From the NCBI GenBank assembly GCA_021736205.1, contig JAIPGF010000006.1, positions 1-64,000 on the forward strand: a stretch of DNA of 64,000 bases. Direction: 5' to 3'. This DNA is from Candidatus Izemoplasma sp. GTDB lineage: Bacteria > Bacillota_I > Bacilli_A > Izemoplasmatales > Izemoplasmataceae. The translations under genes and the position numbers were made by a program. The notes under the pieces are model-generated. The model made no database searches. It saw only the letters and a list, made by a program, of their open reading frames with translations, and was not told where the DNA came from. Shown in pieces: positions 1 through 20,023 of the stretch. Numbering within the stretch: position 1 is the first letter of the stretch; each line of letters opens with the position of its first letter.

Positions 1-300
1 CTTATTCTCCTTTGTTTTTAGGGGGAGGGCAGGAAAAAAGTATTTTATCAATAACTTTTCACCGGAATGTTTGACAAATCTACACTGTGCATTTACGTGA
101 ATCTGGATGAGATGTCATATATCTATTGTAAATGCACATAATCTATAATAACGGTTCATATATGACCTTTTTGATCTTATCCGTACATGTTATAATATTG
201 TATATCATGGTGAGGGGAGGAAAACATGCTATAGTTATTTTATGTTTTTTACTATATTTATTTCAACTAGTTCAAAAATCGGAAACGGAAAGGGAAAAGA
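1..300 (+). other. Left-edge leader without a convincing gene
   Basis: No supported gene. An inverted repeat TGCATTTAC (88-96) / GTAAATGCA (128-136) lies here, and an extended -10 (ATGTTATAAT, 187-196) is a plausible promoter for the secreted protein starting at 301. A 63-codon frame at 132-323 overlaps that gene and has no clear ribosome binding site. The piece presumably continues a cassette that begins left of the window. Confidence 0.4.
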
Positions 301-1437
301 ATGAAAAAACTTTTAATTATTAGTATTTTGCTTTTAGTATTCTTAGCATTGGGTTCAGTTGATTCAATATCTGCAAGTAATGTTAAATATACTAATAGTG
401 TTGGAGTTGAGTTCAAAAACTCTGAAATAGTACACTTAAAAAAACTAGGTTTGATTGATAGAGAGATTGAGGTTTTAACTTCTAAGGAGAAAGAAAAGTA
501 TTTAGCGATAAAAACTGATTATGTCCATCAATCTGTTGTCTATGAAAAAATTGAGAAAGTGAAAAAAGCAAAAGATGGTAAAATTGTTGAAAAAACTATT
601 GTTACCTTGATTGATGAAGAGGAAACACTTCTCTTTAAAGAGAGTACTGATGGAAATTTTCCAGATGAAACTTTATCAACAACCTTTATGACAGAATCGT
701 GTATTAGTCCTGAGTATTGCTTTGAAGATGGTGGAGGTGATGGTACTGTCGATTATTATTATGCTTATGATGAAAGTGACATAGCTGTTAGAAAACTCAC
801 ATTAACTGGTGCCTACAACTATACTACGGATCATATGTTTGTTAAGGTAACTGTAGAATGGTACAACATGCCAGCTTTACCAAGAGGATGGGAAATCATC
901 AATATTAGGCATACTGAAAATGCATGGTACATAAAAACTAATAACCTTTATAATCCCGATATAGGAGGATACGAACAGACTATTGAATTCACTGGTAAGC
1001 AAATGTATGATTGGACTTATTGGGAAAGGGAAACAACGTATGGACCTTTGACATACGGTCCGACAGTACCAAAAACAATATACTATGATGAGGATATTGA
1101 TAATGGTTATTTTCATTCAGATGTTACAAAAGGTATAGCATTAAAAATGAACTTGAAAAACAATGAACAAGGAGAAACGATGCAGTATGATTATGGATAT
1201 AATGCAACAAATTTTGTATTGTCTCTAGAAGCAGATTTTGAGAATACAGGAAATAATACAAATGGTATTTTTTATGGAGGTTATGTTCATCAAGAGGGTT
1301 ATATTAGTATAGATATCTCTGAGGTCACTTTCACATTAACGCCTCCATTTGTAAATCTACCTACAGCAGGTATCTCATGGGGAGATTTATACGAAGATGA
1401 AGGACTTGGAACTAGTATTAATATTCCGATTTCTTAA
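301..1437 (+). CDS. Secreted protein of unknown function
   Basis: 378 aa. The N-terminus is a clear Sec signal peptide: a Lys-Lys start, a hydrophobic run (about residues 4-20) and a small-residue exit near SISAS. No further membrane segment follows, so the product should be exported. The mature part has a charged N-terminal third (about 40-110) and a beta-rich Tyr/Thr/Asn-rich remainder. A Cys pair (SCISPEYC) is followed by a GGGDG linker near residues 145-150. The overall plan (signal peptide, short propeptide-like segment, Gly run, beta-rich C-terminus) resembles the minus-strand secreted protein at 13730-14524 in the same array. I do not recognise a family. A purine-rich stretch just before the ATG serves as RBS. 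It is cargo of the leftmost cassette visible. Confidence 0.75.
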   Translation: MKKLLIISILLLVFLALGSVDSISASNVKYTNSVGVEFKNSEIVHLKKLGLIDREIEVLTSKEKEKYLAIKTDYVHQSVVYEKIEKVKKAKDGKIVEKTIVTLIDEEETLLFKESTDGNFPDETLSTTFMTESCISPEYCFEDGGGDGTVDYYYAYDESDIAVRKLTLTGAYNYTTDHMFVKVTVEWYNMPALPRGWEIINIRHTENAWYIKTNNLYNPDIGGYEQTIEFTGKQMYDWTYWERETTYGPLTYGPTVPKTIYYDEDIDNGYFHSDVTKGIALKMNLKNNEQGETMQYDYGYNATNFVLSLEADFENTGNNTNGIFYGGYVHQEGYISIDISEVTFTLTPPFVNLPTAGISWGDLYEDEGLGTSINIPIS

Positions 1438-1515
1438 TATAAATAAAAATGCTTTTTTAGAAATAAGAGTATTTTATAATTTTTAATTTATAAAGGAAGA
1501 AAGGATGTACTCGTA

Positions 1516-1734
1516 ATGAAAAAATTTTATGATATAACTTCGAAATTACTATTGGTTGTTGCAGCGATTTTCATAATACTAACTATTGTTATATATTTCA
1601 CTGCAGTTGAAGCTAATCCAAATAACATAGATTACACTGTAGTAATTGTTGATCAAGTATTTTTCGGAATATTTTCAATATTTTCATTGGTATTAGGATG
1701 TTTTTTCTATTGGAAACACTCTACGCTTGAATAA
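1516..1734 (+). CDS. Small two-helix membrane protein
   Basis: 72 aa. Two hydrophobic segments (about residues 9-30 and 45-65) joined by a short polar loop. A purine-rich RBS (AAAGGATG) lies about 9 nt before the ATG. It follows the secreted protein at 301 by 78 nt with no terminator seen between, so both may be co-transcribed within one cassette. Function unknown. Short hydrophobic proteins of this type recur in the array (2059, 5888, 7995, 12742). Confidence 0.6.
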   Translation: MKKFYDITSKLLLVVAAIFIILTIVIYFTAVEANPNNIDYTVVIVDQVFFGIFSIFSLVLGCFFYWKHSTLE

Positions 1735-1909
1735 ACAAGTAGCCGTCAGTATTATTCAATAGAAGTTTTAGGGAGATAATTATTTAGGTCTTAGAGAATA
1801 GAGGAAAAAAACAGGAGTCCTTATCAGTATTTGTGAAACAAGACATGATAAATATAAAAACCACTTAGTATTTCTAGTGTGTAATATGATGATTAGTTCC
1901 GACTATATT
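1735..1909. other. Non-coding tail of the cassette before tRNA copy 1
   Basis: No open frame of note. Its last bases (CCGACTATATT, 1899-1909) are the class II arm that also precedes copies 3, 5, 7 and 10 of the tRNA-derived repeat. Confidence 0.5.
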
Positions 1910-1955
1910 CCTTCTAAGCCGTCGGTCGGGGGTTCGAATCCCTCCCGGAATGCCA
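1910..1955 (+). repeat. tRNA-Arg(UCU) 3'-half repeat, copy 1 (intact)
   Basis: 46 bp. Reading from the anticodon loop, the parts fit canonical tRNA spacing: loop CTTCTAA (anticodon TCT), stem GCCGT, variable CGGTC, T-stem GGGGG, loop TTCGAAT, stem CCCTC, acceptor CCGGAAT, discriminator G and CCA. No D-arm or 5' acceptor strand precedes it, so it is not a functional tRNA but the footprint expected from integration into the anticodon loop. The flanking sequence before CCTT is unrelated to tRNA. Best-preserved copy together with 9947. Confidence 0.9.
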
Positions 1956-1969
1956 TTTGAAAACGTAGT

Positions 1970-2005
1970 AACCAAGCCGTTTACGGTTTGGTTATTTTTG
2001 TTTTT
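1970..2005 (+). terminator. Intrinsic terminator moving with the tRNA 3' half
   Basis: AACCAAGCC / GGTTTGGTT stem followed by T5-G-T5. Near-identical hairpins follow copy 5 (7861) and, with changes, the B repeats at 5800 and 12649. This suggests the native tRNA terminator is part of the duplicated unit. Confidence 0.85.
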
Positions 2006-2038
2006 CCTAGAGTGACGGCCTTTAAGGTATGGTATAAT
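2006..2038 (+). promoter_or_regulatory. tRNA 5'-half fragment joined to an extended -10 promoter (module 1)
   Basis: CCTAGAGTGACGGCC (2006-2020) matches tRNA D-stem 3' side plus anticodon stem 5' strand (TAGAGCAACGGCC) with two changes. It pairs perfectly with the GCCGT of the 3'-half repeats. Homology ends at the anticodon loop. TATGGTATAAT (TATAAT at 2033-2038) follows as an extended -10 for the gene at 2059. Confidence 0.75.
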
Positions 2039-2058
2039 ATCTAAGAAGGAGGCTGAAT

Positions 2059-2397
2059 ATGGAGTTCACATTTCTATTAGATTATGCAATTATCATGGTT
2101 TTCTTTTTAGGATTTTTTATATACTTTGGATATTTTGGATACGTTATTTACTTATTGCTTTTTTCTAAAAATAAGTTTCAAAATCTAAATACTTTGCAAA
2201 AAACTGTATCGATAACATTCTTAGTTTTTTCATTGCTTTATATTTTAACTTATGTAACTCATCAAGTGCAAAGTGGATTGTATCATGATGAGAATGGTAC
2301 AGGTCCTAGTGATGCTGAAAACAACTTCTTATTTATTGAATTAGTGTTTGCATATTTAATGCTATTAATATCGAACATATCTATAAGAACTGAATAA
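2059..2397 (+). CDS. Small multi-pass membrane protein (class I cassette)
   Basis: 112 aa with three hydrophobic segments (about 5-35, 50-72 and 88-108) and a polar stretch (about 75-88). AGAAGGAGG sits 9 nt before the ATG. The gene is flanked on the left by the tRNA 5'-half module (2006-2038) and on the right by 3'-half copy 2 (2404), making a self-contained promoter-gene cassette of about 0.4 kb. No family recognised. Membrane location is the only safe prediction. Confidence 0.65.
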   Translation: MEFTFLLDYAIIMVFFLGFFIYFGYFGYVIYLLLFSKNKFQNLNTLQKTVSITFLVFSLLYILTYVTHQVQSGLYHDENGTGPSDAENNFLFIELVFAYLMLLISNISIRTE

Positions 2398-2403
2398 GAG
2401 AGA

Positions 2404-2449
2404 CTTTCTAAGCCGTCGGTCGGGGATTCGAATCCTTCCCGAAATGCCA
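2404..2449 (+). repeat. tRNA-Arg 3'-half repeat, copy 2
   Basis: Same 46-bp unit with several substitutions (CTTTCTAAG start, GGATTCGAATCC T-arm, CCCGAAATGCCA end). T-arm pairing is mostly kept. Preceded by a GAGAGA arm (class I type). Confidence 0.85.
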
Positions 2450-2460
2450 GTTGAAAGTAA

Positions 2461-2484
2461 AGAGTCCATTTGTGGATTCTTTTT
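2461..2484 (+). terminator. Intrinsic terminator after copy 2
   Basis: AGAGTCCA-TTTG-TGGATTCT stem followed by a T run. It occupies the same place as the AACCAAG hairpin after copy 1 but differs in sequence. Confidence 0.75.
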
Positions 2485-2588
2485 CACTAATGTATCTATA
2501 TATTTATAAAACTAAATTTATTTATATATTATGTTTTCATAACTAAATATACATGATATAATATAGTGAAGGTAATGAGGTGATTTTA

Positions 2589-3524
2589 ATGGGTGTAAAT
2601 TATAACGGATTGTTTGACGTCATAAAGAAAAAAGAATTGTCATTGTCACAAATATCTGAGGATTTAAACATTTCATCTGCAACTAGGGCGAAATTCAAAA
2701 AAGGTGAGTATGTATCACTACAAACGATTGAATCTTTATGTAAGTATTTAGGTGTAAAAGTTAATGATATTCTAATGATTGAGATTGAGAAAAAAGATTC
2801 TGCTTTATTAATCCAACTAAAAGAAGAAATGTTTCATGGTATAAAAGGAAGTATATATCATGAAACTCAAGTACTTATGACATATAATTCAAATCATATC
2901 GAAGGTAGTAGATTAACTGCTGAGCAAACAAGATACATCTTTGAAACTAATACAATTGGTACAAAAAATGATGAATCTATAAATGTTGATGATGTGATTG
3001 AGACACAAAACCATTTCCGATGTATTGATTATGCAATAAAAATGGCTTTTGAACCACTTACAGAAACACTGGTTAAGGATATACATAAAATACTTAAAAC
3101 AGGTACTAGCGATTCTAAATTGGAATGGTTCAATGTAGGGGATTATAAACAGAGACCAAACACCGTAGGAGGTTTAGAAACTTCACAACCAAAAGATGTT
3201 TCTAAAGATATCGAAAAGCTTATTGGTTTATACGAGAACAAACTTCAATACAAGTTTGAAGATATATTAGAGTTTCATTATAATTTTGAAATTATACATC
3301 CATTTCAAGATGGAAATGGACGAGTAGGTAGAATTATTGCATTCAAAGAATGCTTAAGGCACGGTATTGTTCCATTCACAATCGATGAAAGTATTAAGAT
3401 GTTTTATTATAGAGGACTTAAAGAGTGGAAAAATGAAAGAGGATACCTGATAGGAACTTGTGAAACTGGACAAGATAAGTATAAAAAACTTCTAGATATA
3501 TATGGAATAGAATATAGGAAATAA
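2589..3524 (+). CDS. Fic-family enzyme with N-terminal helix-turn-helix
   Basis: 311 aa, starting at the ATG 9 nt inside the longest frame because AATGAGGTGATTTT is a correctly spaced RBS. Residues 1-65 form an XRE-type HTH (LSLSQISEDL...TRAKFKKGEY). The catalytic core has the Fic motif HPFQDGNGRVGR (about residues 239-250), in which His is the catalytic base and the second half binds the nucleotide phosphates. SNHIEG (about residue 100) fits the inhibitory [S/T]xxxE[G/N] motif and lies N-terminal to the Fic motif, as in class II self-inhibited Fic proteins. Fic enzymes usually AMPylate proteins; the target is unknown. A lone gene in its cassette with an extended -10 (TGATATAAT, TATAAT at 2557-2562). 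The HTH may give autoregulation. Confidence 0.9.
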   Translation: MGVNYNGLFDVIKKKELSLSQISEDLNISSATRAKFKKGEYVSLQTIESLCKYLGVKVNDILMIEIEKKDSALLIQLKEEMFHGIKGSIYHETQVLMTYNSNHIEGSRLTAEQTRYIFETNTIGTKNDESINVDDVIETQNHFRCIDYAIKMAFEPLTETLVKDIHKILKTGTSDSKLEWFNVGDYKQRPNTVGGLETSQPKDVSKDIEKLIGLYENKLQYKFEDILEFHYNFEIIHPFQDGNGRVGRIIAFKECLRHGIVPFTIDESIKMFYYRGLKEWKNERGYLIGTCETGQDKYKKLLDIYGIEYRK

Positions 3525-3547
3525 CATCCTTCAACTCCGACGATTTA

Positions 3548-3593
3548 CCTTCTAAGCCGTCGGTCGGTGGCTATAATCCCTCCCGAAATGCCA
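3548..3593 (+). repeat. tRNA-Arg 3'-half repeat, copy 3
   Basis: 46 bp with a damaged T-arm (GGTGGCTATAATCCC) but an intact anticodon loop and stem and CCA end. The preceding arm is CCGACGATTTA (class II). No terminator hairpin follows this copy. Confidence 0.85.
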
Positions 3594-3880
3594 TTTGAGG
3601 GGATACGAATATGACTCAATGCGTGCTTACATTTACAGATTTAGAATTAAAAACGAACAAGATGAATATCTCTAGTTACTTTTATGTTTGTTATTGATAA
3701 AAAGAAGAACATTTCATTTGAGTTAGCATTAAGTGAATCATTGAAAAAAACAAAAATGGAATCAGCAGGTTTTATGATAGTTAATTGATTTCTTGTATAA
3801 TATTGAAAAAAATGCGACATATATGCGCTGTTGATAAAGTTGCATATAGGGTACAATGAACTAAAAAGGAGGAAGATGTA
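3594..3880 (+). other. Decayed open frames and leader of the protease gene
   Basis: No intact gene. Short frames at 3611-3700 and 3678-3788 (for example FELALSESLKKTKMES) read like remnants of one decayed coding sequence split by a frameshift. The last 30 nt hold a TACAAT-like -10 and the strong AAAAAGGAGGAAG RBS for the protease at 3881. Confidence 0.3.
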
Positions 3881-5050
3881 ATGAAACGATTTATGGTATT
3901 TTTTATGATAACTTTCTTGATTGTTTTTACCAATGTTGTCGATGTTAATGCGAACATAGGACTTGGTGAGGCTATTAAGAAACAGGAAAAATTGTTGAGA
4001 GAGTATTCAGTATTTATGTCTCAATCAAAGGGTCACATAGGATTTGAAGATGAATTTGGTGGTGCATACTTTGATGATAATGATGAACTAGTAATTAATG
4101 TTGTTTCGAGTAAAAAAAATCAGTTTCTAAATAAGAATGATATAAGTTCAGAATTTAGAATCAGGGAAGTTAAGTATAGTTTACAAATAATCAATAGCGC
4201 TATTCCTATTGTTGAGAAGTTAATTGATGAGGGAATCGCAAAATCTGTAAGTAGATCTGAAAAAGACAACACACTTATTGTCGGACTATGGGAAAATGAT
4301 GTTAGGATTAAAGAACAGATAATAGAATTAACTGGTTTAGAAAATATGATTTTCAAGATTTCAAAGAGTAATCTCCAAACCGCTTTAACTGTCAGATATG
4401 CAATTAATGGTACAAGTGCACAGATTGATATGTACACATTTGCTACTATAGGTTTTGCAGCTAGAAACTCGAGTGGAGATGATGGTTTTGTTACAACTGG
4501 GCATGGGATACAAGATGGTGATGATGTAAACTGTGATGGACATGTTATTTATACTTGTGGTGATGTTCGCCAAAACTCTTTTGCTGATGGTTCTGATTCG
4601 GATGCTGCATTTGTTGAACTCAGAGATAATTGGTATAATAGATGGGACCCATCTTATAATTTTATGAATGGTGACTTCTATACTAATGTTATAAGTAGCA
4701 CAACTACTTTGGATAGTCTGATTGTTCAAAACATGACTGTAACAGCATATGGAGATGAATCTGGTAGGCAATTTGGGGAAGTATTAGAAACATATTATAC
4801 AGATACAGTAGGAAATGTAGAATTAGTAGGTTTTGTTAAATGCGACTACATTGCAATTTTAGGTGATTCAGGTGCAGCTGTAACTGCTTATGTATATAAT
4901 CCTTCATATGGATATCCAACAAGACATGTTATAGGGTTGCAGAGTTATTCTAATCTAGAAGAGATAACTTTCAATTGGGTATCGGGGTCATATAGTGTAT
5001 TTAGTAGGGCAGACAATATTTATGACGATTTAAACATTACATCTTATTGA
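3881..5050 (+). CDS. Secreted chymotrypsin-fold serine protease
   Basis: 389 aa. A signal peptide covers residues 1-24, followed by a propeptide-like region (about 25-175) and a trypsin-like catalytic domain. The triad is visible: His208 in TTGHGI, Asp241 in SDSDAAF, Ser330 in GDSGAAV. The order and the long N-terminal propeptide resemble the alpha-lytic protease/streptogrisin type (S1 family). Cys218 and Cys226 may form the disulfide next to the catalytic His. The product should be exported and self-processed. A lipoprotein gene follows 43 nt downstream (5094), probably in one operon. The strand-swapped C39-like protease/lipoprotein pair at 10442-12099 has the same arrangement. Confidence 0.85.
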   Translation: MKRFMVFFMITFLIVFTNVVDVNANIGLGEAIKKQEKLLREYSVFMSQSKGHIGFEDEFGGAYFDDNDELVINVVSSKKNQFLNKNDISSEFRIREVKYSLQIINSAIPIVEKLIDEGIAKSVSRSEKDNTLIVGLWENDVRIKEQIIELTGLENMIFKISKSNLQTALTVRYAINGTSAQIDMYTFATIGFAARNSSGDDGFVTTGHGIQDGDDVNCDGHVIYTCGDVRQNSFADGSDSDAAFVELRDNWYNRWDPSYNFMNGDFYTNVISSTTTLDSLIVQNMTVTAYGDESGRQFGEVLETYYTDTVGNVELVGFVKCDYIAILGDSGAAVTAYVYNPSYGYPTRHVIGLQSYSNLEEITFNWVSGSYSVFSRADNIYDDLNITSY

Positions 5051-5093
5051 ATCTAGCATCTTAAAAGGATAGAAATAATGTGGAGGAGAAAAT

Positions 5094-5465
5094 ATGAACA
5101 AAGTAAAAATATTTTTGATGGTTTTAGTGTTGTCATTTGTATTATCATCTTGTAGTGCTTCAGAAGAACGAGTTGTAATAGAAAAATCAATCTCCTATGA
5201 TTTAATTGGTATAAAAGCAATAGAAGTTAATGGAGAGGTTTTCTCAACCTTCTGTTTGCAAGACAAAGAAGGAGAAGGCGTAAATGTTTTTGGTACTAAA
5301 CGAGTTTATACTGATATCGATGGAATAGAATATAGTTCATATGAGAATGGAACTTGCGTTATTGTTTTCAATGATGTAATGTATCATGGATTTGACTTGC
5401 TGGAAGATAAGACACTTACAGTTGAAGAGTTGGAATTACTTGAGTTTCCTTTTGAAAAGGAATGA
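5094..5465 (+). CDS. Small lipoprotein next to the serine protease
   Basis: 123 aa. Lys-rich start, hydrophobic segment, and lipobox LSSC at about residues 17-20, so the mature protein should be lipid-anchored outside the membrane. The rest (about 100 aa) is beta-prone with no known motif and two further Cys residues. GTGGAGGA precedes the ATG by 8 nt. Its position after the exported protease suggests an inhibitor, chaperone or immunity role. This is an inference from context only. Confidence 0.7.
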   Translation: MNKVKIFLMVLVLSFVLSSCSASEERVVIEKSISYDLIGIKAIEVNGEVFSTFCLQDKEGEGVNVFGTKRVYTDIDGIEYSSYENGTCVIVFNDVMYHGFDLLEDKTLTVEELELLEFPFEKE

Positions 5466-5587
5466 AGTCTATTACTCGAAATATATTTATGACTTATCTA
5501 AGTCTAGATTGTACATCCGATTATATATATGAACACTGCTATAAATAGAGAGTTTATAATGAAATAGAATGAGTTATAATGTATTGT

Positions 5588-5785
5588 ACTGTGCGGGAAA
5601 TTAAACTGTGGTTACCATAAGTATGATATACATAAAGAATATTTAGAATAAGTAGTAAATCTTTTTACAAATAAAAGAACTGTTAATTGTAATTGAATGC
5701 AACACATAACGGACAACCTAAGATTTTCAACGCAACACGGTATATAAGTACCAAAAATTGGAATAAAAACATTACGGACAAGACA
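5588..5785 (+). repeat. B-family repeat, copy B1 (long form)
   Basis: About 198 bp starting ACTGTGCGGGAAATTAAAC and ending ACGGACAAGACA. It contains inner echoes ATGCAACACAT, AACGCAACAC and ACGGACAA. It is related to 12496-12635 (also long) and to the shorter pieces at 12220 and 16788. It occupies the slot where a tRNA 3' half would be expected: the tail, terminator and tRNA 5'-half fragment follow directly. No coding potential seen. This and its flanks fill the gap between 5465 and 5888. Confidence 0.65.
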
Positions 5786-5799
5786 TTAGAAAGCTTAAT

Positions 5800-5834
5800 A
5801 ACCAAAACCTCTATGGATTTGGTTATTTTTATTT
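5800..5834 (+). terminator. Terminator of the tRNA-tail type after B1
   Basis: AACCAAA...TTTGGTT stem followed by ATTTTTATTT, homologous to the hairpins at 1970 and 7861. Confidence 0.75.
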
Positions 5835-5835
5835 A

Positions 5836-5868
5836 CCTAAAGCAATGGCCTTTTGGGTATGTTATAAT
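5836..5868 (+). promoter_or_regulatory. tRNA 5'-half fragment plus extended -10 promoter (module 2)
   Basis: CCTAAAGCAATGGCC (5836-5850) is a mutated version of CCTAGAGCAACGGCC. The promoter TATGTTATAAT follows (TATAAT at 5863-5868), serving the gene at 5888. Confidence 0.65.
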
Positions 5869-5887
5869 TATGTAGGGATGTGATTAA

Positions 5888-6133
5888 ATGAAAAACCTTT
5901 ATGTTAAAACTCTACTAGTTTATATACTAATTTTGTTAGTATTTCTTATAACTATTTTAGTATGGAATTTCTTTTTCATTATATTTGTTTTTGTTAGTGC
6001 AATTGTCACAAAAAGAAAGAGCCTTGTTGTAATAAAGAAAGATAAACTCACATTCAAGTATGTACTGTTCAATTTAACATTAATGATTGCTACAATGGGG
6101 TCACTCTTCTTAATAGTTAGTGCTATTTTATAG
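5888..6133 (+). CDS. Small two-helix membrane protein (class I cassette)
   Basis: 81 aa with hydrophobic segments at about residues 8-38 and 58-81, separated by a basic loop (TKRKSL...KKDK), so both ends probably lie on the same side. A GTAGGGATGTGA RBS precedes the ATG. The gene sits alone between module 2 and degenerate 3'-half copy 4, a cassette of about 0.3 kb. Function unknown. Confidence 0.55.
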   Translation: MKNLYVKTLLVYILILLVFLITILVWNFFFIIFVFVSAIVTKRKSLVVIKKDKLTFKYVLFNLTLMIATMGSLFLIVSAIL

Positions 6134-6151
6134 ATGGAAATTTGAGAAGAA

Positions 6152-6195
6152 CCCTCTAAACCGCGATCGGGCTTAGAATCCCTCCTGGAGTCCCA
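6152..6195 (+). repeat. tRNA-Arg 3'-half repeat, copy 4 (degenerate)
   Basis: 44 bp. CCCTCTAAACCGCGATCGG with a broken T-arm and CTGGAGTCCCA end. Recognisable by order and spacing only; among the oldest-looking copies. Confidence 0.65.
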
Positions 6196-6203
6196 AAAAA
6201 ACT

Positions 6204-6234
6204 AATCAAGCGATTTTCCGCTTGATTTTTTTAT
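6204..6234 (+). terminator. Intrinsic terminator after copy 4
   Basis: AATCAAGCG...CGCTTGATT stem followed by T7. Confidence 0.8.
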
Positions 6235-6296
6235 AGGTATGGGTTACTCTAGTTTTTATAAATGGGTAAAAACTGCAATAAATTACCTATGTTATG

Positions 6297-6325
6297 TTGA
6301 CATGGGTAATCATTACCTATATAAT
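6297..6325 (+). promoter_or_regulatory. Consensus promoter with a palindrome in its spacer (Fic gene)
   Basis: TTGACA (6297-6302), 17-bp spacer, TATAAT (6320-6325). The spacer holds the palindrome GGTAATCATTACC (6305-6317), an operator-like arrangement. GGGTAA and TTACCT half-sites also occur just upstream (about 6264-6290). The winged-helix C-terminus of the Fic protein is a candidate binder. Confidence 0.75.
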
Positions 6326-6350
6326 TGAAGTATGGAAAGGATGATCTTGT

Positions 6351-7415
6351 ATGTTTACGTTAAAACAACTACCCCCAAAAGCAGATTTCAATAAGACAGA
6401 GATATTATATAAAACAATTGCTGCTCATAAGGCTTTAGCAGAATTGAAAGGATACTCAGATGTATTACCAAATAAGAATATATTAATCAATGCAGTAACA
6501 ATTAATGAAGCAAAAGATAGTTCAGAAATTGAGAATATTATAACGACACATGATGAGTTGTATAAGGCACTTAGTACATCAAATGCAAGCATTGCTGCAA
6601 AAGAAGTGGTTAATTATCGGACTGCTTTATGGAATGGGTATGAGTTAATTAATGAGCATGGATTTTTATCAATCAACATGATTGTGAAAATCCAATCTAT
6701 CGTGGAGCAAAGTGAAGCGGGAATTAGAAAGGTGCCAGGTACTATATTACGAAATGAGCGAACAAAAGAAACAGTATATACACCACCGGTTGGTTATGAC
6801 GAAATTATCCGACTAATGACAAATTTGGAGCAGTATATTAATAATGATGAAGATCAAATTGATGATTTGATAAAATTAGCAGTGATTCATTATCAATTTG
6901 AGTCTATTCATCCATTTTATGATGGAAACGGAAGAACTGGGCGAATCATCAATGTCATTTATCTGACGTTGAAAGGGTTGCTGGATACACCTATATTGTA
7001 CCTAAGTTCTTACATCAATAATAATAAAGCTGATTATTATCGTCATCTTCAGGAAGTTCGAGACACAGATTCGTGGGATGGTTGGGTAATATATATGCTA
7101 GAAGGTATAGCCGAAACAGCAACTAAAACGTTAAACATTATGAAGAGTATTAATCAACTTATAGAGGAAATGATTGAAGAAATTAAACAAGCTTTACCAA
7201 AAATTTATTCAAAAGAGTTAATTGATGTTATTTTTTATGAGTTTTATACGAAGATATCATTTGTGGTAAAAGGTGTGGGTGTCACTCGTAAAACAGCATC
7301 AAGTTATCTTTCTCAGTTAGAAGATAAAGGATTTTTGCGATCAGAAAAGTTTGGGAGAGAACGAGTTTATGTAAATGAACGTTTATATGAAATGATTAAA
7401 AAAGCCAATTTCTAA
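6351..7415 (+). CDS. Fic-family AMPylase with C-terminal winged helix
   Basis: 354 aa, a usual size for stand-alone Fic proteins of the SoFic type. The N-terminal part carries the inhibitory motif SSEIEN ([S/T]xxxE[G/N], about residue 63). The core has the catalytic motif HPFYDGNGRTGR (about 186-197). The last 80 residues form a winged-helix-like region (VTRKTASSYLSQLEDKGFL). The predicted reaction is transfer of AMP from ATP to a protein hydroxyl, with self-inhibition by the glutamate of the SSEIEN helix. It has a perfect consensus promoter with an internal palindrome and an AAAGGATGAT RBS. Second Fic gene of the array; it differs from the 2589 protein in domain order. Confidence 0.9.
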   Translation: MFTLKQLPPKADFNKTEILYKTIAAHKALAELKGYSDVLPNKNILINAVTINEAKDSSEIENIITTHDELYKALSTSNASIAAKEVVNYRTALWNGYELINEHGFLSINMIVKIQSIVEQSEAGIRKVPGTILRNERTKETVYTPPVGYDEIIRLMTNLEQYINNDEDQIDDLIKLAVIHYQFESIHPFYDGNGRTGRIINVIYLTLKGLLDTPILYLSSYINNNKADYYRHLQEVRDTDSWDGWVIYMLEGIAETATKTLNIMKSINQLIEEMIEEIKQALPKIYSKELIDVIFYEFYTKISFVVKGVGVTRKTASSYLSQLEDKGFLRSEKFGRERVYVNERLYEMIKKANF

Positions 7416-7498
7416 GAATATATGTTCAATATGACGCTATTGAAAATATGAATAGATAAATACTTAGAATTATAACCAGAATGAAGGAGATGATTTGA

Positions 7499-7726
7499 AT
7501 GAGTGATGTATTGGGAGCAATATTATTAGTTTAGATTGCAATACTAAATATTATTGGTATGTTCAAACCAAAACAAGTTCTTAAGTTGAGTGATATGTTT
7601 AGACTCAAAGGAGATAGAGAGTATACTGAATGCGCAGTATCTTGGACCGTATTTGGATGTATGCTTATGGCTATTGCATTTGGAACTATGGCATATTTCT
7701 ATATTGATTACTTGATAAATAGATAA
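7499..7726 (+). pseudogene. Interrupted small membrane protein (DUF6199-like)
   Basis: A 75-codon frame beginning ATG at 7499 after a GAAGGAGATGA RBS has an in-frame TAG at 7532-7534. Beyond it the frame stays open to TAA at 7724-7726 and encodes a small protein with a central polar motif (FKPKQVLKLSDMFRLKG) between hydrophobic segments. This layout resembles small DUF6199-type membrane proteins, a weak assignment from memory. A single-base nonsense change is the simplest reading. A terminator at 7731 closes the unit. Confidence 0.6.
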
Positions 7727-7730
7727 TATG

Positions 7731-7755
7731 AAAGCCTCATTTAAGTGGCTTTTAT
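7731..7755 (+). terminator. Intrinsic terminator after the 7499 pseudogene
   Basis: AAAGCC-TCATTTAAGT-GGCTTTTAT hairpin with a short T run. Confidence 0.65.
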
Positions 7756-7800
7756 AAGTTCTTAAACCTGATAGAAAGGTACTTTCTTTGCGACGATTTA

Positions 7801-7846
7801 CCTTCTAATCCGTCGGTCGGGGGTTCGAATCCCTCCCGGAATGCCA
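7801..7846 (+). repeat. tRNA-Arg 3'-half repeat, copy 5
   Basis: 46 bp, identical to copy 1 except CTAATCCGT for CTAAGCCGT. The preceding arm is GCGACGATTTA (class II). Confidence 0.9.
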
Positions 7847-7860
7847 TTTGAAAGCATAAT

Positions 7861-7890: not shown

Positions 7891-7896
7891 TATTTT

Positions 7897-7972: not shown

Positions 7973-7994
7973 TATTTAAGAAGGAGATGGTTTG

Positions 7995-8519: not shown

Positions 8520-8564
8520 CCTTCTAAGCCGTCGCCCTAGGTTTAAATCTCTCTCGGAATGCCA
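8520..8564 (+). repeat. tRNA-Arg 3'-half repeat, copy 6 (degenerate T-arm)
   Basis: 45 bp. The anticodon part is intact (CCTTCTAAGCCGTCG) but the T-arm is rearranged (CCCTAGGTTTAAATCTCTC). The GGAATGCCA end is intact. Preceded by GAAAAA (class I arm). A weak terminator-like tail follows (TAGTTTACC...TTTAGTTATTTTT). Confidence 0.8.
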
Positions 8565-8735: not shown

Positions 8736-9923
8736 ATGTTGAAAAGAGAAAAATACTTAAGTAAAATTGAACCTTTTTTCGAATCTGAATTGATAAAAGT
8801 TATTGCGGGTATGCGACGATCTGGTAAATCGATATTATTAAACCAGATAAGGGAGCGTGTAGTGGAAAATGGTGTTACTGAAAAACAAATTCAGTTTATA
8901 AATTTTGAATCACTTAAGTACAAATCTTTGTATAATGCTGATACTTTATATGAGTATCTTAGTGATAAATTACTTGTAAATGCAAAAAATTATATCTTTT
9001 TTGACGAGATCCAAATCGTTGAAAATTTTGAGAGCGTATTGAATTCTCTTAGAGTTGATTTTGACGTATCTATTTTTGTTACAGGATCAAATGCTGATTT
9101 ACTGTCAGGTGAGTTAGCTAGTTTACTATCTGGACGATATATAAAGTTTGACATTTTTCCTTTCACATATCAAGAATATGTGAAGTTTTTGAAATTGGAC
9201 CCTGAGAATGATGCCGTTTTTAAAGATTTTTTAATCTATGGGGGGTTACCACAGACCTTTAACTTTCAAAACAAACAAGAAAAAGAAGCATTACTAATAG
9301 ATATCCTCGACTCCATTGTCTATAAAGATATTTTGATGAACTTATCAGCAAAGAATATTGAGACGATAAAGAGGTTTATAAGTTATGTTGTTCAATCCAC
9401 CGGATTAGATTTTAACGCGAGATCAATAGTTAATCATTTAAAGTCAGAAAGAATAAGTACCACTCCCGATACAATATATAGTTATATTGATGCGATACTA
9501 AATAGTTTGATTGTTCGTAAATGCCCTAGATATGATATTAAAGGAAAAAAAATATTAAAGCGAAACGAAAAGTACTATGTTGCTGATTTAGGTCTTAGAA
9601 ATCATACAATTAATCTAGAGAAAATTGATTATGGAGCTTGTTATGAAACAATAGTCTATAACCAATTGGTTTCTGACGGATATGAGGTTACTATTGGAAA
9701 AATCAATGACTTTGAGATTGATTTCATTGCGACAAAACCTGGTGAAAAAATGTATGTACAAGTAACATACCAATTAGCTTCAGAAGAAATCATAGAGAGA
9801 GAGTTTCGTGGGTTAGAAGCTATAAATGATAATTACGATAAATTTGTAATTTCCGGGGATATTCTAGATTTCTCAAGAAATGGAATAAAACACATAAACA
9901 TTATTGAATTTTTAATGAAATAA
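8736..9923 (+). CDS. AAA-type ATPase with DUF4143 domain
   Basis: 395 aa. N-terminal P-loop ATPase: Walker A GMRRSGKS (about 25-32), Walker B YIFFDEIQ (about 89-96), then TGSNADLLSGELASLLSGR, a hallmark of the AAA_14/DUF4143 family. The C-terminal DUF4143 region has the restriction-endonuclease-like pattern FEIDFIATK...YVQVTYQ (about 325-345), possibly a degenerate PD-(D/E)XK fold. Members are common in genomic islands with unsettled function. Extended -10 TGATATACT and AAAGAGGTGAA RBS. Single gene in its cassette, ended by copy 7. Confidence 0.9.
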   Translation: MLKREKYLSKIEPFFESELIKVIAGMRRSGKSILLNQIRERVVENGVTEKQIQFINFESLKYKSLYNADTLYEYLSDKLLVNAKNYIFFDEIQIVENFESVLNSLRVDFDVSIFVTGSNADLLSGELASLLSGRYIKFDIFPFTYQEYVKFLKLDPENDAVFKDFLIYGGLPQTFNFQNKQEKEALLIDILDSIVYKDILMNLSAKNIETIKRFISYVVQSTGLDFNARSIVNHLKSERISTTPDTIYSYIDAILNSLIVRKCPRYDIKGKKILKRNEKYYVADLGLRNHTINLEKIDYGACYETIVYNQLVSDGYEVTIGKINDFEIDFIATKPGEKMYVQVTYQLASEEIIEREFRGLEAINDNYDKFVISGDILDFSRNGIKHINIIEFLMK

Positions 9924-9946: not shown

Positions 9947-9992
9947 CCTTCTAAGCCGTCGGTCGGGGGTTCGAATCCCTCCCGGAATGCCA
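9947..9992 (+). repeat. tRNA-Arg 3'-half repeat, copy 7 (intact)
   Basis: 46 bp, identical to copy 1. The preceding arm CCGACGATATT (9936-9946) creates an inverted repeat CCGACG...CGTCGG around the CCTT crossover. Confidence 0.9.
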
Positions 9993-10992: not shown

Positions 10993-12099
10993 TTACCAAG
11001 GAATATAACTGTACATGAAGTAATAATCATCTAATTCACTATAATTTAAGAATATTTCTCTAGGTGTAGATGCTGCGTTGTCGTATGCAATTACACCAGC
11101 TACACCATACGCATTTACATAACCGATGCCTGTTAATGAATGTTCATAGTAAGTAGCATGTCCATAAACATTTATTACAACTGGATTTCCTCTGGAAATC
11201 AGTGTTTGATAATCAAATGTATTAGTAACACCAGTCAATCCACCACTATTAAAACTACCAACTAAAATATGATATGTACTGTGATTATAATCATCTAACC
11301 AATCTTCCCATCCTAATGATAAGTCTGGTTGACTAGTTCCCCCGTCAGTTTTTGTATTCAAATATAATGCTAAGTTGTCAATTAAGTTATAACTATAATT
11401 ATTTTCAGAGTTAACAGGATAGTTATATGGTCCATCATAAGGTGATATACTGTTGTGCCATTCATTATCAAAATATGCTATAACGTTCGCTAGAGCTGTA
11501 GGTGTACATCCCTTTCTCCAAGTATAATCTGGCACATCATCAATAGTCTTTCTAGTTGAATAATATGAACTAGTTACAGTAACATTTGAAGATAGATTTG
11601 GATGATATGTTTGACTAATTGTGGTTGATAAAGTAGAGTAACTAAATGTATCATCTCCATTGTCAGCAGTTATTCTTGCTACAGTACCGTAAGTGTAATA
11701 CTTATCTGACTCAATCTCAGGGACATATAGCTCATCAAAATCCTTTTTTGATACATACTGACCTGGAAAAATATAATAAACTTTACCATTGATCTCATTT
11801 GCCAAATCAGTACCTTCCCATGTTGCCTCAATAATACCTTTATTATCAAGGTATAAGATATAACCCTGTTGTGATTGCCCATTAAAGACTCTGTAGATGT
11901 AACCGATTTTAACATCTCCATATCCGTAAATGTCGTCACCTTTCTTTATTTTCGCATTTTCCCATTCTGGAGTAACACTAGACATGGAAATAAAAAACTG
12001 TTCAACTTCATTATATTCTGGACCATTAGCATAAACTTCCATTGTTGAAAATGAAACAAAAATAATGCAAAGCATAAAAAATAAACCTAATTTCTTCAT
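10993..12099 (-). CDS. Secreted papain-fold (C39-like) cysteine peptidase
   Basis: 368 aa from the ATG preceded by AAAGGAGA; an upstream in-frame ATG lacks an RBS. A signal peptide covers residues 1-24. The catalytic domain is C-terminal: Cys198 in RKGCTPTALANVIAYF, His320 in YYEHSLTGIGY and Asp340/Asn341 in VIAYDNAA, the order of the Peptidase_C39_2/papain-like group. The region 25-190 is probably a propeptide. The product should be exported. The gene runs against the direction of the tRNA-derived repeats, as does its downstream lipoprotein. The next region to the right carries two B repeats. Confidence 0.8.
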   Translation of the reverse strand: MKKLGLFFMLCIIFVSFSTMEVYANGPEYNEVEQFFISMSSVTPEWENAKIKKGDDIYGYGDVKIGYIYRVFNGQSQQGYILYLDNKGIIEATWEGTDLANEINGKVYYIFPGQYVSKKDFDELYVPEIESDKYYTYGTVARITADNGDDTFSYSTLSTTISQTYHPNLSSNVTVTSSYYSTRKTIDDVPDYTWRKGCTPTALANVIAYFDNEWHNSISPYDGPYNYPVNSENNYSYNLIDNLALYLNTKTDGGTSQPDLSLGWEDWLDDYNHSTYHILVGSFNSGGLTGVTNTFDYQTLISRGNPVVINVYGHATYYEHSLTGIGYVNAYGVAGVIAYDNAASTPREIFLNYSELDDYYFMYSYIPW

Positions 12100-12219
12100 A
12101 AAAAAATCTCCTTTCATAGCTGAGAGATTTGATATCAAATTTCATCCCCCGTGTATTTATTATATCATGATTATTCATAATACAAAAAAAGTTTCCAAAT
12201 CCGCAATTTATTTTAATGG
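12100..12219 (-). promoter_or_regulatory. Upstream region of the C39-like protease operon
   Basis: AT-rich leader. The minus-strand TATTATATCATG-type segment near 12155-12170 could hold the -10. No gene. The rest of the gap up to 12741 holds repeats B2 and B3, with nothing recognisable between them. Confidence 0.35.
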
Positions 12220-13139: not shown

Positions 13140-13184
13140 CCTTCTAAGCCGTCGGTCGGGGTTCGAATCTCTCCCGGAATGCCA
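13140..13184 (+). repeat. tRNA-Arg 3'-half repeat, copy 8
   Basis: 45 bp; one G missing from the T-stem (CGGGGTTCGAATC), otherwise like copy 1. Preceded by TAGAAA (class I arm). Confidence 0.88.
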
Positions 13185-15041: not shown

Positions 15042-15711
15042 ATGACTATTAGTAAAGAATGGGATTGGAAAAATGAAAAAAATCCGAGATGGTTGATACC
15101 AAGTGAGGATTCATATTTTTTTTCACAGATCGAAGCGTTTATCTTTCAATAAAGTTATTGATTTGGGCTGTGGAAGAGGTAGACACTCATTACTGTTTGC
15201 AAAAAATGGATATGATGTAACTGCAGTTAATTTATCAAAGTATGCAATAAAAGAGTTAGTGAAAAAAGCAAAGAAGGATAGGCTAAACATTGAATGTAAA
15301 GTAATAGACATGTTAAAACTTTCATTTAAAGATAACTATTATGATTGTTTGTTTACATATCATGTGATTTCACACTCTGTTTCTAAAGAGGTAAAGACTA
15401 TCATTTCTGAAATAAGTAGGATTGTTAAATATAAAGGTGAAGTCTTTGTAACATTTGGTAACATTGAAATCCTATCTATGATTAACTAAGATTTGATTGA
15501 GTTTATTGAGCCGAATGTAATTATTAAGAAGCAAGGTGTTGAAAAAGGAGTTCCACATTATTATATTGATCAGCATATTTTACAGGAATTATTCAGTGAT
15601 TTTAAAGTTATAAGTGTAAGAAAAATTCAGAATGTTAACCTTGATGCAAACAAGAACTATGGTTATCATTATTTTATACATGAACAAGTAAATAAAAAAG
15701 AAACCTTCTAA
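15042..15711 (+). pseudogene. SAM-dependent methyltransferase, frameshifted and interrupted
   Basis: The start ATG at 15042 follows a strong RBS and opens MTISKEWDWKNEKNPRWLIP. A frameshift in a T8 run near 15116-15124 moves the frame to the methyltransferase core VIDLGCGRGRHSLLFAKNGYD (SAM-binding motif I) and YDVTAVNLSKYAI. An in-frame TAA at 15487-15489 interrupts again, with homologous coding continuing to 15711. The natural stop (15709-15711) lies inside 3'-half copy 9: the TAA of the anticodon loop CTTCTAA ends the protein. Class I methyltransferase, acceptor unknown, now probably inactive. Sequencing error in the homopolymer could explain the first lesion but not the TAA. Confidence 0.8.
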
Positions 15712-15748
15712 GCCGTCGGTCGGGGTTCGAATCCCTCCCGGAATGCCT
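15704..15748 (+). repeat. tRNA-Arg 3'-half repeat, copy 9
   Basis: 45 bp; one G missing from the T-stem and the final A changed (GCCT). Preceded by AAGAAA (class I arm). It supplies the stop codon of the methyltransferase frame. Confidence 0.88.
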
Positions 15749-16632: not shown

Positions 16633-16678
16633 CCTTCTAAGCCGTCGGTCGGGGGTTCGAATCTCTCCCAGAATGCCA
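16633..16678 (+). repeat. tRNA-Arg 3'-half repeat, copy 10
   Basis: 46 bp with two changes from copy 1 (AATCTCTCCCAGAATGCCA). The preceding arm is TAGACGATTTA (class II). Confidence 0.9.
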
Positions 16679-16978: not shown

Positions 16979-17581
16979 ATGATAAAAACAACTGATGAAC
17001 TTGTTGCAGTATATAAAGATTATTCTGATCCCTTAGGAAAAATACACAGAGAAATCAAAAAAGGGAATCTTATTCCACTTAAAAAAGGCATATATGAAAC
17101 TGATAAAACAATTCCTGGTCACTATCTTTCAGGAATAATTTATGGTCCATCTTACTTGTCGTTTGAATTCGCTTTATCCTATCATGGGCTGATTCCCGAA
17201 AGAGTATACACATATACAAGTGCAACGTATAATAAAAACAAATCAAAACGATATAAAAATGCCTTTGGTTTGTATACTTATCGCGATATACCAAATAAAG
17301 CATATCCTTATGGTGTGAAAAGTTATATTGAAAACGGGTACTCATATATAGTTGCGATACCTGAAAAAGCACTTTGTGATAGATTGTATATCGCATCCCC
17401 TCAAACAAGTATGAAAAACTTAAAGTCTTTGCTTTTTGAAGACTTGAGGATTGAAAAGGAAGATTTTTACAATCTAGATTTAAAAAAAGTAATAAAGTTA
17501 TCAGAATTATACCCATCATCTAATATGAAAATACTAAAAAAAATACTATTGAAGGAGGTAAAGAAAAATGACAGTCATTGA
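16979..17581 (+). CDS. abiEi: AbiEi-type antitoxin (type IV toxin-antitoxin)
   Basis: 200 aa. N-terminal winged-helix part (about 1-50: IHREIKKGNLIPLKKGIYE) followed by the AbiEi core YLSGIIYGPSYLSFEFALSY, YGVKSY and IAIPEKALCDRLY-type segments (here VAIPEKALCDRLY). AbiEi proteins neutralise AbiEii indirectly and repress their own promoter. RBS AAGGAGGAAA. It overlaps the toxin gene by 14 nt. The presence of a complete TA operon inside the cassette array fits a stabilising role known for TA cassettes in integrons. Confidence 0.88.
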   Translation: MIKTTDELVAVYKDYSDPLGKIHREIKKGNLIPLKKGIYETDKTIPGHYLSGIIYGPSYLSFEFALSYHGLIPERVYTYTSATYNKNKSKRYKNAFGLYTYRDIPNKAYPYGVKSYIENGYSYIVAIPEKALCDRLYIASPQTSMKNLKSLLFEDLRIEKEDFYNLDLKKVIKLSELYPSSNMKILKKILLKEVKKNDSH

Positions 17582-18434
17582 ACAGATGTTAAACAAATAT
17601 ACTCTGAATAACATTGAAGATGAAAAGAATGCGATAAAAGAGATTATGCAAGAAGTAACACTATCTGGACTAGCAAGAACTGACTTTTTTAAACATGCAG
17701 CTTTTTATGGTGGAACTGCATTGAGGATGTTCTATGGACTCAATCGATTTTCAGAAGATTTAGATTTTACATTGTTATCTCCATCGGAAGACTTTAATTT
17801 TGATAAGTATTTACCAGCAGTTAAAGAAGCGGTGGAATCTCTCGGGTTGGAGTTTGAAGTTGGTAATAAAAAGAAAAATTTTAAAACCAACATTAAATCT
17901 GCATTCTTAAAAGGAAACACGAGAAAACAGTTTTTGATTTTTTATCCAAATACAACTCATTTAAATCAAATCAACAACAATGAGAAGATTAAAATTAAAT
18001 TTGAGATTGATGTGAATCCTCCCTTACATGCAACAACCGAGTTTAAATATAGACTACTTCCAAATACGTATCAAGTTAGAATATATGATAAATCGTCATT
18101 ATTTGCAGGAAAACTACATGCGATAATAGCGAGAAAATGGAAACATAGAACAAAAGGCAGAGATTTCTACGATTTTGTTTTCTACATTGCAAATGAGGTT
18201 CCAGTCAACCTACACCACTTAGAGGCTAGACTAAAACAAACAATGACAATAGATTCAGATTCGATTTTATCATTGGAATCATTAAAAGAACTCCTCTATA
18301 ATCGTTTAAAAGAAATCGATTTTGAGAAAGCCAAACTAGATGTAATTCCATTCATTAAAGACGATGGTGATCTAAATTCATGGAATGAAGAGTTTTTTAA
18401 AAATATAATAAATGACTTGAAAGTTAAAGAATAG
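17568..18434 (+). CDS. abiEii: AbiEii-type nucleotidyltransferase toxin
   Basis: 288 aa. The nucleotidyltransferase signature is visible: YGGTALRMFYGLNRFSEDLD (about 49-68; GG followed by the DLDF carboxylates), then the conserved KFEIDVNP and SSLFAGKLHAIIARKWKHRTKGRDFYDF region (about 180-205). AbiEii toxins modify their RNA or nucleotide targets with NTPs and arrest growth or abort phage infection. RBS AAGGAGGTAAAG lies within the end of the antitoxin gene. Length is usual for the family, no lesions seen. Confidence 0.88.
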   Translation: MTVIEQMLNKYTLNNIEDEKNAIKEIMQEVTLSGLARTDFFKHAAFYGGTALRMFYGLNRFSEDLDFTLLSPSEDFNFDKYLPAVKEAVESLGLEFEVGNKKKNFKTNIKSAFLKGNTRKQFLIFYPNTTHLNQINNNEKIKIKFEIDVNPPLHATTEFKYRLLPNTYQVRIYDKSSLFAGKLHAIIARKWKHRTKGRDFYDFVFYIANEVPVNLHHLEARLKQTMTIDSDSILSLESLKELLYNRLKEIDFEKAKLDVIPFIKDDGDLNSWNEEFFKNIINDLKVKE

Positions 18435-19091: not shown

Positions 19092-19136
19092 TCTTCTAAG
19101 CGTCAGTCGGGCAGTCTAATTCCTTTCGGAATGCTA
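19092..19136 (+). repeat. tRNA-Arg 3'-half repeat, copy 11 (degenerate, last)
   Basis: 45 bp with many changes (TCTTCTAAGCGTCAGTCGGG, broken T-arm, CGGAATGCTA end). Last copy in the window; typical chromosome genes follow. Preceded by TAGAAA (class I arm). Confidence 0.7.
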
Positions 19137-19279: not shown

Positions 19280-20023
19280 TTATCTAGGATATAGATCTCC
19301 CATTTCTTTTGTTTCAAGAGCTGCAATTCTTTGTCGTTGTGATTTGATAAGACTAACATAATATTCTTCCTTATCTTTGACCTCCTCAACCATTCCATCA
19401 ACATAATCAACAAATTCTTGTTCAGAAAGCTTTTTATCAACATTTCTAGTTGCAAGAGCAAATAAGTTATCGCCAGTCATTGTAATATGATCATTGTTAG
19501 GTATGTAGTGAAAGTATAGATTTTCATTTATTATTGGAACAAAACGAATTGCTAAGTTCTCAGGATTCTTTTTACGTTCAATTACAGAAACAGATGTGGT
19601 TGCACGTAAGAAGGTGATAGGGTAGGTTTTAACTTCTTTTGGAATTTCAATTTCCTCTGTTAAACTACTTGTATCTAACACAAACATTAGTCTATAATCT
19701 ACTGATAGATTAGCTTCGGTTTCCTCATGTAATTTTGTAAGCTCTTTATGTGCTTTCTCGTACTCTTTCTCTTTAAATGTTTTTAGTTCTTTAACATGAT
19801 TTAACAATTCTGTGGTTTTACGTTTATTGTCTTTATCAAAATGAATTTCTTCTAGAACAATCGTTCCTTTCACGTGAAAGGTTTTTGAGTCCGTTTCCTG
19901 ATATTTTGTATAACTGTGTTTATACTTTTTCTGTAATACATTTCCGTTTTCATATAATCTTACGAGTTCAAATCCTCTTGATGAGTGATTACTTCGTTTC
20001 TTGTAAATAAGTCTTGGTTTCAT
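19280..20023 (-). CDS. Unknown protein with coiled-coil segments
   Basis: 247 aa, soluble, no signal peptide. Basic N-terminus (KPRLIYKKRSN), a Lys/Glu-rich predicted coiled coil at about 85-120 (LKTFKEKEYEKAHKELTKLHEE), a beta-rich centre, and a second helical segment near the C-terminus. ATG preceded by an AGGAGGTT-type RBS (complement of AACCTCCT). No known motif. First gene right of the tRNA-derived array and on the opposite strand, so it may be resident chromosome or the outer end of the island. Confidence 0.7.
   Translation of the reverse strand: MKPRLIYKKRSNHSSRGFELVRLYENGNVLQKKYKHSYTKYQETDSKTFHVKGTIVLEEIHFDKDNKRKTTELLNHVKELKTFKEKEYEKAHKELTKLHEETEANLSVDYRLMFVLDTSSLTEEIEIPKEVKTYPITFLRATTSVSVIERKKNPENLAIRFVPIINENLYFHYIPNNDHITMTGDNLFALATRNVDKKLSEQEFVDYVDGMVEEVKDKEEYYVSLIKSQRQRIAALETKEMGDLYPR

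What the first reader, a model, noticed from the sequence alone, without database searches (positions are those of the whole stretch)
1..300. Prediction: intact tRNA-Arg(UCU) and recombinase just left of the window
Insertion in a tRNA on this strand regenerates the tRNA on the left and displaces older 3' halves to the right. The last copy (19092) is the most worn and borders ordinary chromosome genes. No tyrosine or serine recombinase is encoded in the window, so the platform should lie upstream of position 1.
Basis: inference. Interest (0 to 1): 0.6.

Follow-up and report, generated by a model that had tools for sequence, protein, structure and literature searches.

The report
tRNA-anchored gene cassette array's missing head
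The window starts inside a row of small mobile genes that were inserted one after another into an arginine tRNA gene; the intact tRNA almost certainly lies to the left as predicted, but the assembled contig begins at base 1 with an insertion sequence, and whether an integrase sits there too is about an even bet.

Summary
The prediction is partly supported. It cannot be read directly: window base 1 is the first base of contig C9, and bases 1-139 are one end of a multicopy IS481-type insertion sequence. The premises hold. Eleven 3' halves of tRNA-Arg(UCU) lie on the + strand at 1910-19134. There is no intact tRNA and no tyrosine or serine recombinase in the window. The 19092 copy is the most worn. 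Related Izemoplasmatales genomes supply the test. In 9 of 9 arrays where an intact tRNA-Arg(UCU) and displaced halves share a contig, the intact gene is at the 5' end and no half lies upstream. The block tRNA-Arg(CCG)/607-aa gene/tRNA-Arg(UCU) found in relatives is wholly missing from this assembly, as expected if it lies in the gap. The recombinase part is weaker. A dedicated tyrosine recombinase sits antisense just 3' of the tRNA in 5 of 10 genomes, but not in the two same-genus ones. The system resembles an integron: about 1-kb, mostly single-gene, co-oriented cassettes, one shared with another species at 97.6% identity. Integrase-bearing elements often carry a CRESS-type or Rep_trans rolling-circle Rep. 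It is a new variant of tRNA-targeted additive islands.

The parts
1..139 (-). End of a multicopy IS481-type insertion sequence; the transposase start codon lies a few bases left of base 1, reading leftward. This is also the contig start.
   Evidence: same 138 nt at 97-100% identity at many contig ends. C51 and G027/G025 copies run into a DDE transposase.
301..1437 (+). Secreted protein of unknown family (378 aa), cargo of the leftmost assembled cassette, which is cut off by the IS
   Evidence: no Pfam or PADLOC match.
1910..1955 (+). tRNA-Arg(UCU) 3' half, 46/46
2404..2449 (+). tRNA-Arg(UCU) 3' half, worn (41/46)
2580..3524 (+). Fic protein with HTH (PDC-S04-like), cassette cargo; same cassette at 81% DNA identity in another genus (G015)
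3548..3593 (+). tRNA-Arg(UCU) 3' half, worn (41/46)
6152..6195 (+). tRNA-Arg(UCU) 3' half, strongly worn (36/46); left boundary of the cassette shared with G027
   Evidence: homology with G027 begins exactly here, and in G027 this same stretch is the 3' half of the intact tRNA.
6351..7415 (+). SoFic-type Fic protein; cassette shared with another species (G027) at 96.5-97.6% DNA identity
7801..7846 (+). tRNA-Arg(UCU) 3' half (45/46)
8520..8564 (+). tRNA-Arg(UCU) 3' half, worn (37/46)
8736..9923 (+). AAA_14/DUF4143 ATPase (PADLOC candidate PDC-S01), cassette cargo; related cassette in G015 (74%)
9947..9992 (+). tRNA-Arg(UCU) 3' half, 46/46
10993..12138 (-). Secreted C39-like peptidase, cassette cargo (weak Pfam match)
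13140..13184 (+). tRNA-Arg(UCU) 3' half (44/46)
15704..15747 (+). tRNA-Arg(UCU) 3' half (44/46)
16633..16678 (+). tRNA-Arg(UCU) 3' half (44/46)
16979..18434 (+). AbiEi (16979-17581) and AbiEii (17568-18434): abortive-infection / type IV toxin-antitoxin pair, cassette cargo
19092..19134 (+). Last and most worn tRNA-Arg(UCU) 3' half (34/46); right edge of the array
19280..20023 (-). Chromosomal flank gene (247 aa); its homologue in G027 lies about 4 kb left of tRNA-Arg(UCU)

Best explanation
Window 1-19136 is the distal part of a cassette array anchored on the single-copy tRNA-Arg(UCU) gene. Each cassette begins with its own copy of the tRNA 3' half (from the anticodon loop, CCTTCTAA..., to the CCA end) and a terminator, followed by usually one gene. 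A tRNA-specific tyrosine recombinase inserts a circular cassette at the anticodon loop. The cassette's 3' half rebuilds the tRNA, and the previous 3' half is pushed one step to the right, where it decays. The intact tRNA-Arg(UCU) therefore lies left of base 1 (probability about 0.85), beyond an IS481-type element that broke the assembly there. A tyrosine recombinase gene next to it is about even odds (0.45), because cassettes can outlive or be served in trans by the integrase. Shown: array anatomy, polarity in relatives, cassette sharing between species, tRNA-type-associated integrases next to intact tRNAs, and absence of the tRNA from this assembly. Inferred: the recombination reaction, the circular intermediate, and what the gap holds in this genome.
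For: Eleven co-oriented halves against zero expected. Intact tRNA at the 5' end in 9 of 9 testable arrays, and wear gradients in the long arrays of relatives. The cassette with the Fic gene matches G027 at 96.5% over 1271 bp starting exactly at the core CCTTCTAA, where in G027 it forms the 3' half of the intact tRNA, while three chromosomal genes match at only 67-68%. 62 cassettes have a median of 1008 bp, and the longest ORF is on the tRNA strand in 55 of the 60 that have one. Cassette families recur in other genera at other positions. Tyrosine recombinases with the catalytic residues conserved sit antisense 3' of intact tRNAs for Arg(UCU), Trp, Phe, Arg(ACG) and Cys, and integrase clades follow tRNA type. 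Within the window's own genome, tRNA-Phe on C16 and tRNA-Cys on C55 have this layout, and displaced Cys halves with an integrase fragment lie on C32. The block tRNA-Arg(CCG)/607-aa gene/tRNA-Arg(UCU) of relatives is entirely missing from this assembly.
Against: Nothing left of base 1 is assembled, so neither the tRNA nor the integrase is seen in this genome. Five of ten arrays, including both same-genus ones, lack an adjacent integrase. Wear inside the window is not ordered (rho -0.17, p 0.30), so the window alone does not show the polarity. A flank gene found right of the array here lies left of the tRNA in G027, so the region has been rearranged, and an IS at the edge could have helped.
Confidence: 0.8

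Rival explanations
1. Orphan array: the intact tRNA-Arg(UCU) is to the left, but no recombinase is encoded beside it or anywhere in the genome. Cassettes were put there by an integrase since lost, or supplied in trans by visiting elements.
For: G027 and G026 (same genus), G048, G012 and G015 have the intact tRNA and halves but no adjacent integrase. G027 and G048 are 99% complete and have only Xer-like or distant recombinases.
Against: Five other arrays have the integrase next to the tRNA. This genome has integrases of the same broad kind beside tRNA-Phe and tRNA-Cys.
Confidence: 0.5
2. The array was separated from its tRNA by an IS-mediated rearrangement: left of base 1 is unrelated chromosome, and the intact tRNA-Arg(UCU) sits elsewhere.
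For: An IS481-type element lies exactly at the left edge. The right-flank gene is on the other side of the tRNA in G027.
Against: No array in 9 relatives is detached from its tRNA on a contig that spans both. The tRNA is absent from all 58 contigs, as expected if it lies in a gap.
Confidence: 0.12
3. Ordinary tRNA pseudogenes or tandem duplications: partial tRNA copies made by unequal homologous recombination, not by site-specific insertion.
For: Partial tRNA copies alone could arise by duplication (one search shows them as repeats).
Against: The spacers are unrelated genes. All copies start at the same base in the anticodon loop. The shared cassette begins exactly at that base. A single cassette is shared between species whose chromosomal genes are 67-68% identical.
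Confidence: 0.03
4. A true integron: IntI-type integrase with folded attC sites.
For: Arrays of small, mostly single-gene, co-oriented cassettes added at one end.
Against: The recombinase scores 78 bits against a 265-bit cut-off for the integron-integrase family. The repeats are tRNA 3' halves, not attC. The entry site is a tRNA gene.
Confidence: 0.02

Closest known systems
tRNA/tmRNA-targeted genomic islands (Islander; PMC4383910)
   Same: Tyrosine recombinase, insertion inside a tRNA, tRNA rebuilt by the element, displaced 3' fragment marks the far end.
   Different: Islands there are usually single and carry their own integrase; here up to 12 halves per array, most units about 1 kb with one gene and no integrase.
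Additive flexible genomic islands (Alteromonas, PMC4119200; Methylophilaceae tRNA-Lys repeats, PMC10872708)
   Same: A conserved tRNA is the insertion target for successive gene cassettes; recurring copies of the tRNA 3' end separate them.
   Different: Those papers describe larger or metabolic cassettes, with 20-52 nt repeats. Here the repeat is the 46-nt anticodon-loop-to-CCA half, cassettes are mostly single genes on the tRNA strand, the integrase families follow tRNA type, and integrase elements often carry rolling-circle Reps.
Tycheposons (Prochlorococcus; described via PMC10872708 and PMC11389934, original paper not held)
   Same: tRNA-linked elements with tyrosine recombinases carrying cargo.
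   Different: Reported as 4-200 kb elements; these cassettes have a median of 1 kb, in a different phylum. Homology of the recombinases was not tested.
Integrons
   Same: Ordered array of small, co-oriented, mostly single-gene cassettes entering at one end beside an integrase gene.
   Different: The entry site is a functional tRNA; the integrase is not IntI and the repeats are not attC.
pCRESS integrated plasmids (PMC6668415)
   Same: Viral_Rep plus helicase protein encoded on site-specifically integrated bacterial elements.
   Different: Here the Rep sits directly upstream of a tRNA-targeting tyrosine recombinase at the head of cassette arrays; placement in pCRESS groups 1-9 was not tested.

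Membership tests
tRNA-targeted tyrosine-recombinase genomic islands | Displaced tRNA 3' fragments in direct orientation at element ends | tested here: met
   11 halves, all + strand
tRNA-targeted tyrosine-recombinase genomic islands | Intact tRNA restored at the 5' end of the island | tested here: inconclusive
   Met in 9 of 9 relatives; in this genome the contig ends first
tRNA-targeted tyrosine-recombinase genomic islands | Integrase gene next to the restored tRNA | tested here: inconclusive
   5 of 10 relatives yes, 5 no; not assembled here. Present beside tRNA-Phe and tRNA-Cys in the same genome
Additive flexible genomic island | Several different cassettes stacked at one conserved tRNA, varying between strains or species | tested here: met
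Integron | Integron-type integrase (IntI) | tested here: not met
   TIGR02249 78.5 bits against cut-off 265 for a relative's Arg-type integrase, P0004
Integron | attC sites between cassettes | tested here: inconclusive
   The repeats between cassettes are tRNA-Arg 3' halves; no attC-specific model was run
Tycheposon | Tycheposon-type recombinase and gene set | not tested
   Original paper not held; no reference sequences compared
pCRESS integrated elements (relatives' integrase-bearing units only) | HUH Rep fused to helicase, no capsid genes | tested here: inconclusive
   Viral_Rep PF02407 in L117, L047, L128, L129, L209, with RNA_helicase PF00910 over cut-off in L047 and L209; capsid genes not searched

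The most novel reading that the evidence does not exclude
Izemoplasmatales run an integron-like capture system on tRNA genes. Single-gene passenger cassettes, many carrying defence or toxin-antitoxin genes, are mobilised in trans by tRNA-type-specific tyrosine recombinases that ride on single-stranded-DNA-type rolling-circle elements (CRESS-like or Rep_trans). The tRNA serves as a self-healing entry site and the decaying 3' halves act as a record of arrival order.
Probability: 0.35. Interest if true: 0.75.

Novelty: new variant of a known kind. Interest (0 to 1): 0.52.

Why it matters
If right, wall-less relatives of Mycoplasma have a cassette-stockpiling system with the economy of an integron but built on tRNA genes, which gives a clear place to look for new defence genes and an ordered record of gene arrivals. 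It also explains why many of these assemblies break at or near the 3' end of this tRNA. The specific prediction shows that the head of an array can be inferred from its worn tail, and that the integrase should not be assumed to be there.

Tried and rejected
Looked for the intact tRNA-Arg(UCU) elsewhere in this genome: none within 3 mismatches. Tried to find the other side of the gap from the left-flank genes of relatives: the 607-aa gene and tRNA-Arg(CCG) are missing from this assembly, so no contig could be joined. Rfam on the window gave only sub-threshold or chance matches; tandem-repeat search gave nothing relevant. Relatives of the integrase in plasmid and phage collections are all under 60% identity, about 25-29% among the best rows. 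The one close viral-contig hit (L209) carries a Rep identical to that of L119, a MAG contig, so it adds no independent source. I considered that each displaced half should match the host's stem allele. By a crude count 29 of 48 do and several arrays mix alleles, so this gave no clear support. I considered a second integrase-binding motif in the cassette leaders (CTAGAGCAACGGCCT, 7 matches against 0.3 expected); it is real as a repeat but its role was not tested.

Full report
WHAT WAS CLAIMED.

THE EDGE OF THE WINDOW. The window is bases 1-64000 of contig C9 (73175 nt) of a 58-contig, 91.7%-complete genome. Base 1 is therefore the contig start and nothing upstream is assembled. Bases 1-139 recur at 97-100% identity, mostly at contig ends. 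On C51 the repeat continues into an ORF whose homologues in G027 and G025 are about 340-aa open frames. The G027 copy is a DDE transposase closest to IS481, just under that family's cut-off at 223.7 of 224 bits. The immediate left neighbour is thus a transposase reading away from the window.

THE PREMISES. The window holds eleven 3' halves of tRNA-Arg(UCU), all on +, starting at 1910, 2404, 3548, 6152, 7801, 8520, 9947, 13140, 15704, 16633 and 19092. The core pattern (up to 3 mismatches) occurs 8 times, and 0 times in 100 shuffles. There is no tRNA in the window and no PF00589 or PF00239 hit on C9. The last half is the most worn (34/46), but order and wear are not correlated within the window (rho -0.17, p 0.30). 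The intact tRNA-Arg(UCU) is absent from the whole assembly.

TEST IN RELATIVES. The family is Izemoplasmatales: close integrase relatives are Ca. Izemoplasma and Mycoplasmatota genomes. In nine genomes (G027, G026, G045, G046, G048, G012, G013, G015, G017) an intact tRNA-Arg(UCU) and displaced halves share a contig. In every one the intact gene is first and all halves are downstream on the same strand. In the longest arrays the halves decay away from the tRNA (G045 rho -0.96, G046 -0.84, G013 -0.77, halves only). Several other family assemblies break within a few bases of the tRNA's 3' end, as expected when that half is repeated. In relatives the tRNA follows a 607-aa gene (G026, G027, G045, G048), itself preceded by tRNA-Arg(CCG) in G026 and G027. 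All three are missing from this genome's assembly. One gap just left of C9 explains this simply.

THE RECOMBINASE. Tyrosine recombinases with all catalytic residues conserved (R, K, H-x-x-R, H, Y in the alignment) sit antisense 3' of the tRNA-Arg(UCU) in G045, G046, G013, G017 and G011, and are absent there in G027, G026, G048, G012 and G015. The recombinases of the 99%-complete G027 and G048 match the Arg-type integrases only distantly. In other genomes related integrases lie, mostly 75-140 nt, 3' of tRNA-Trp, tRNA-Phe and tRNA-Arg(ACG). In this genome they lie beside tRNA-Phe (C16) and tRNA-Cys (C55), with displaced Cys halves and an integrase fragment on C32. tRNA type follows the integrase tree (5 changes among named types). 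The integrase to expect left of base 1 is thus well defined, but its presence is about even odds.

HOW IT WORKS (inference from anatomy). The cassette carrying a Fic gene at window 6152-7418 matches G027 at 96.5% over 1271 bp, while three chromosomal genes match at 67-68%. The match begins exactly at CCTTCTAA. In G027 that same stretch is the 3' half of the working tRNA; in the window it is an old displaced half. This shows that cassettes bring their own 3' half and that insertion falls in the anticodon loop. Sixty-two cassettes from twelve arrays have a median of 1008 bp, and the longest ORF is on the tRNA strand in 55 of the 60 that have one. Related cassettes occur at other ranks in other genera (G000_c2 and G015_c2 81%; G000_c6 and G015_c3 74%). 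Window cargo includes two Fic proteins, an AAA_14/DUF4143 ATPase and AbiEi/AbiEii, all matching defence or candidate-defence models. Larger units carry the integrase, often with a Viral_Rep-domain protein just upstream (L117, L047, L128, L129, L209) or a Rep_trans protein (L126, L050). The proposed logic is that these units supply recombinase and single-gene cassettes are passengers. Excision, circles and action in trans are not shown.

KNOWN OR NEW. Insertion into a tRNA with restoration of the gene is textbook (Islander, PMC4383910). Stacked cassettes at a tRNA are known as additive flexible genomic islands (PMC4119200), including recurring tRNA-Lys 3' ends (PMC10872708). New here, as far as the held literature shows, are the integron-like scale and orientation bias, the link of integrase type to tRNA type across Izemoplasmatales, and the pairing with CRESS-type Reps. 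pCRESS elements are known to integrate (PMC6668415), but that paper's main text does not mention tRNA. It is not an integron: the integrase is far below that family's cut-off.

VERDICT. Intact tRNA to the left: about 0.85. Tyrosine recombinase beside it: about 0.45. Both need reads across the IS.

Noticed in passing
L117 5084-5989; L047 16127-16978 (-); L128 3810-4721; L129 5091-6011; L209 5100-6023: CRESS-type Rep (Viral_Rep domain, some with helicase match) encoded directly upstream of the tRNA-targeting tyrosine recombinase; L126 and L050 have Rep_trans proteins in the same place.
   Followed up: partly
G000 contig C32 (L094 306-349, 2093-2137, 530-1681, 2726-3133): A second array in the same genome: displaced tRNA-Cys 3' halves, a Fic gene and an integrase fragment 73% identical to the one beside intact tRNA-Cys on C55.
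   Followed up: partly
window 2007, 5837, 7898, 12686, 14982: Cassette leaders repeat CTAGAGCAACGGCCT, a piece of the tRNA 5' anticodon arm, after the terminator and before the promoter; possibly a recombinase arm site.
   Followed up: partly
window 5784, 12634, 14960: Leader-like sequence without a recognisable complete 3' half in front, suggesting further, more eroded insertions.
   Followed up: no
window 7419-7800: About 380 bp follow the Fic gene that are not in the G027 copy; they hold a broken small ORF, perhaps a remnant of another cassette.
   Followed up: no
window 19280-20023 and L044 1601-2353: The gene right of the array here has its homologue about 4 kb left of tRNA-Arg(UCU) in G027, same strand: a local rearrangement.
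   Followed up: partly
L138-L152: The scan also found more distant tyrosine recombinases (31-36% identity, C-terminal part) in many marine Poseidoniales archaea.
   Followed up: no
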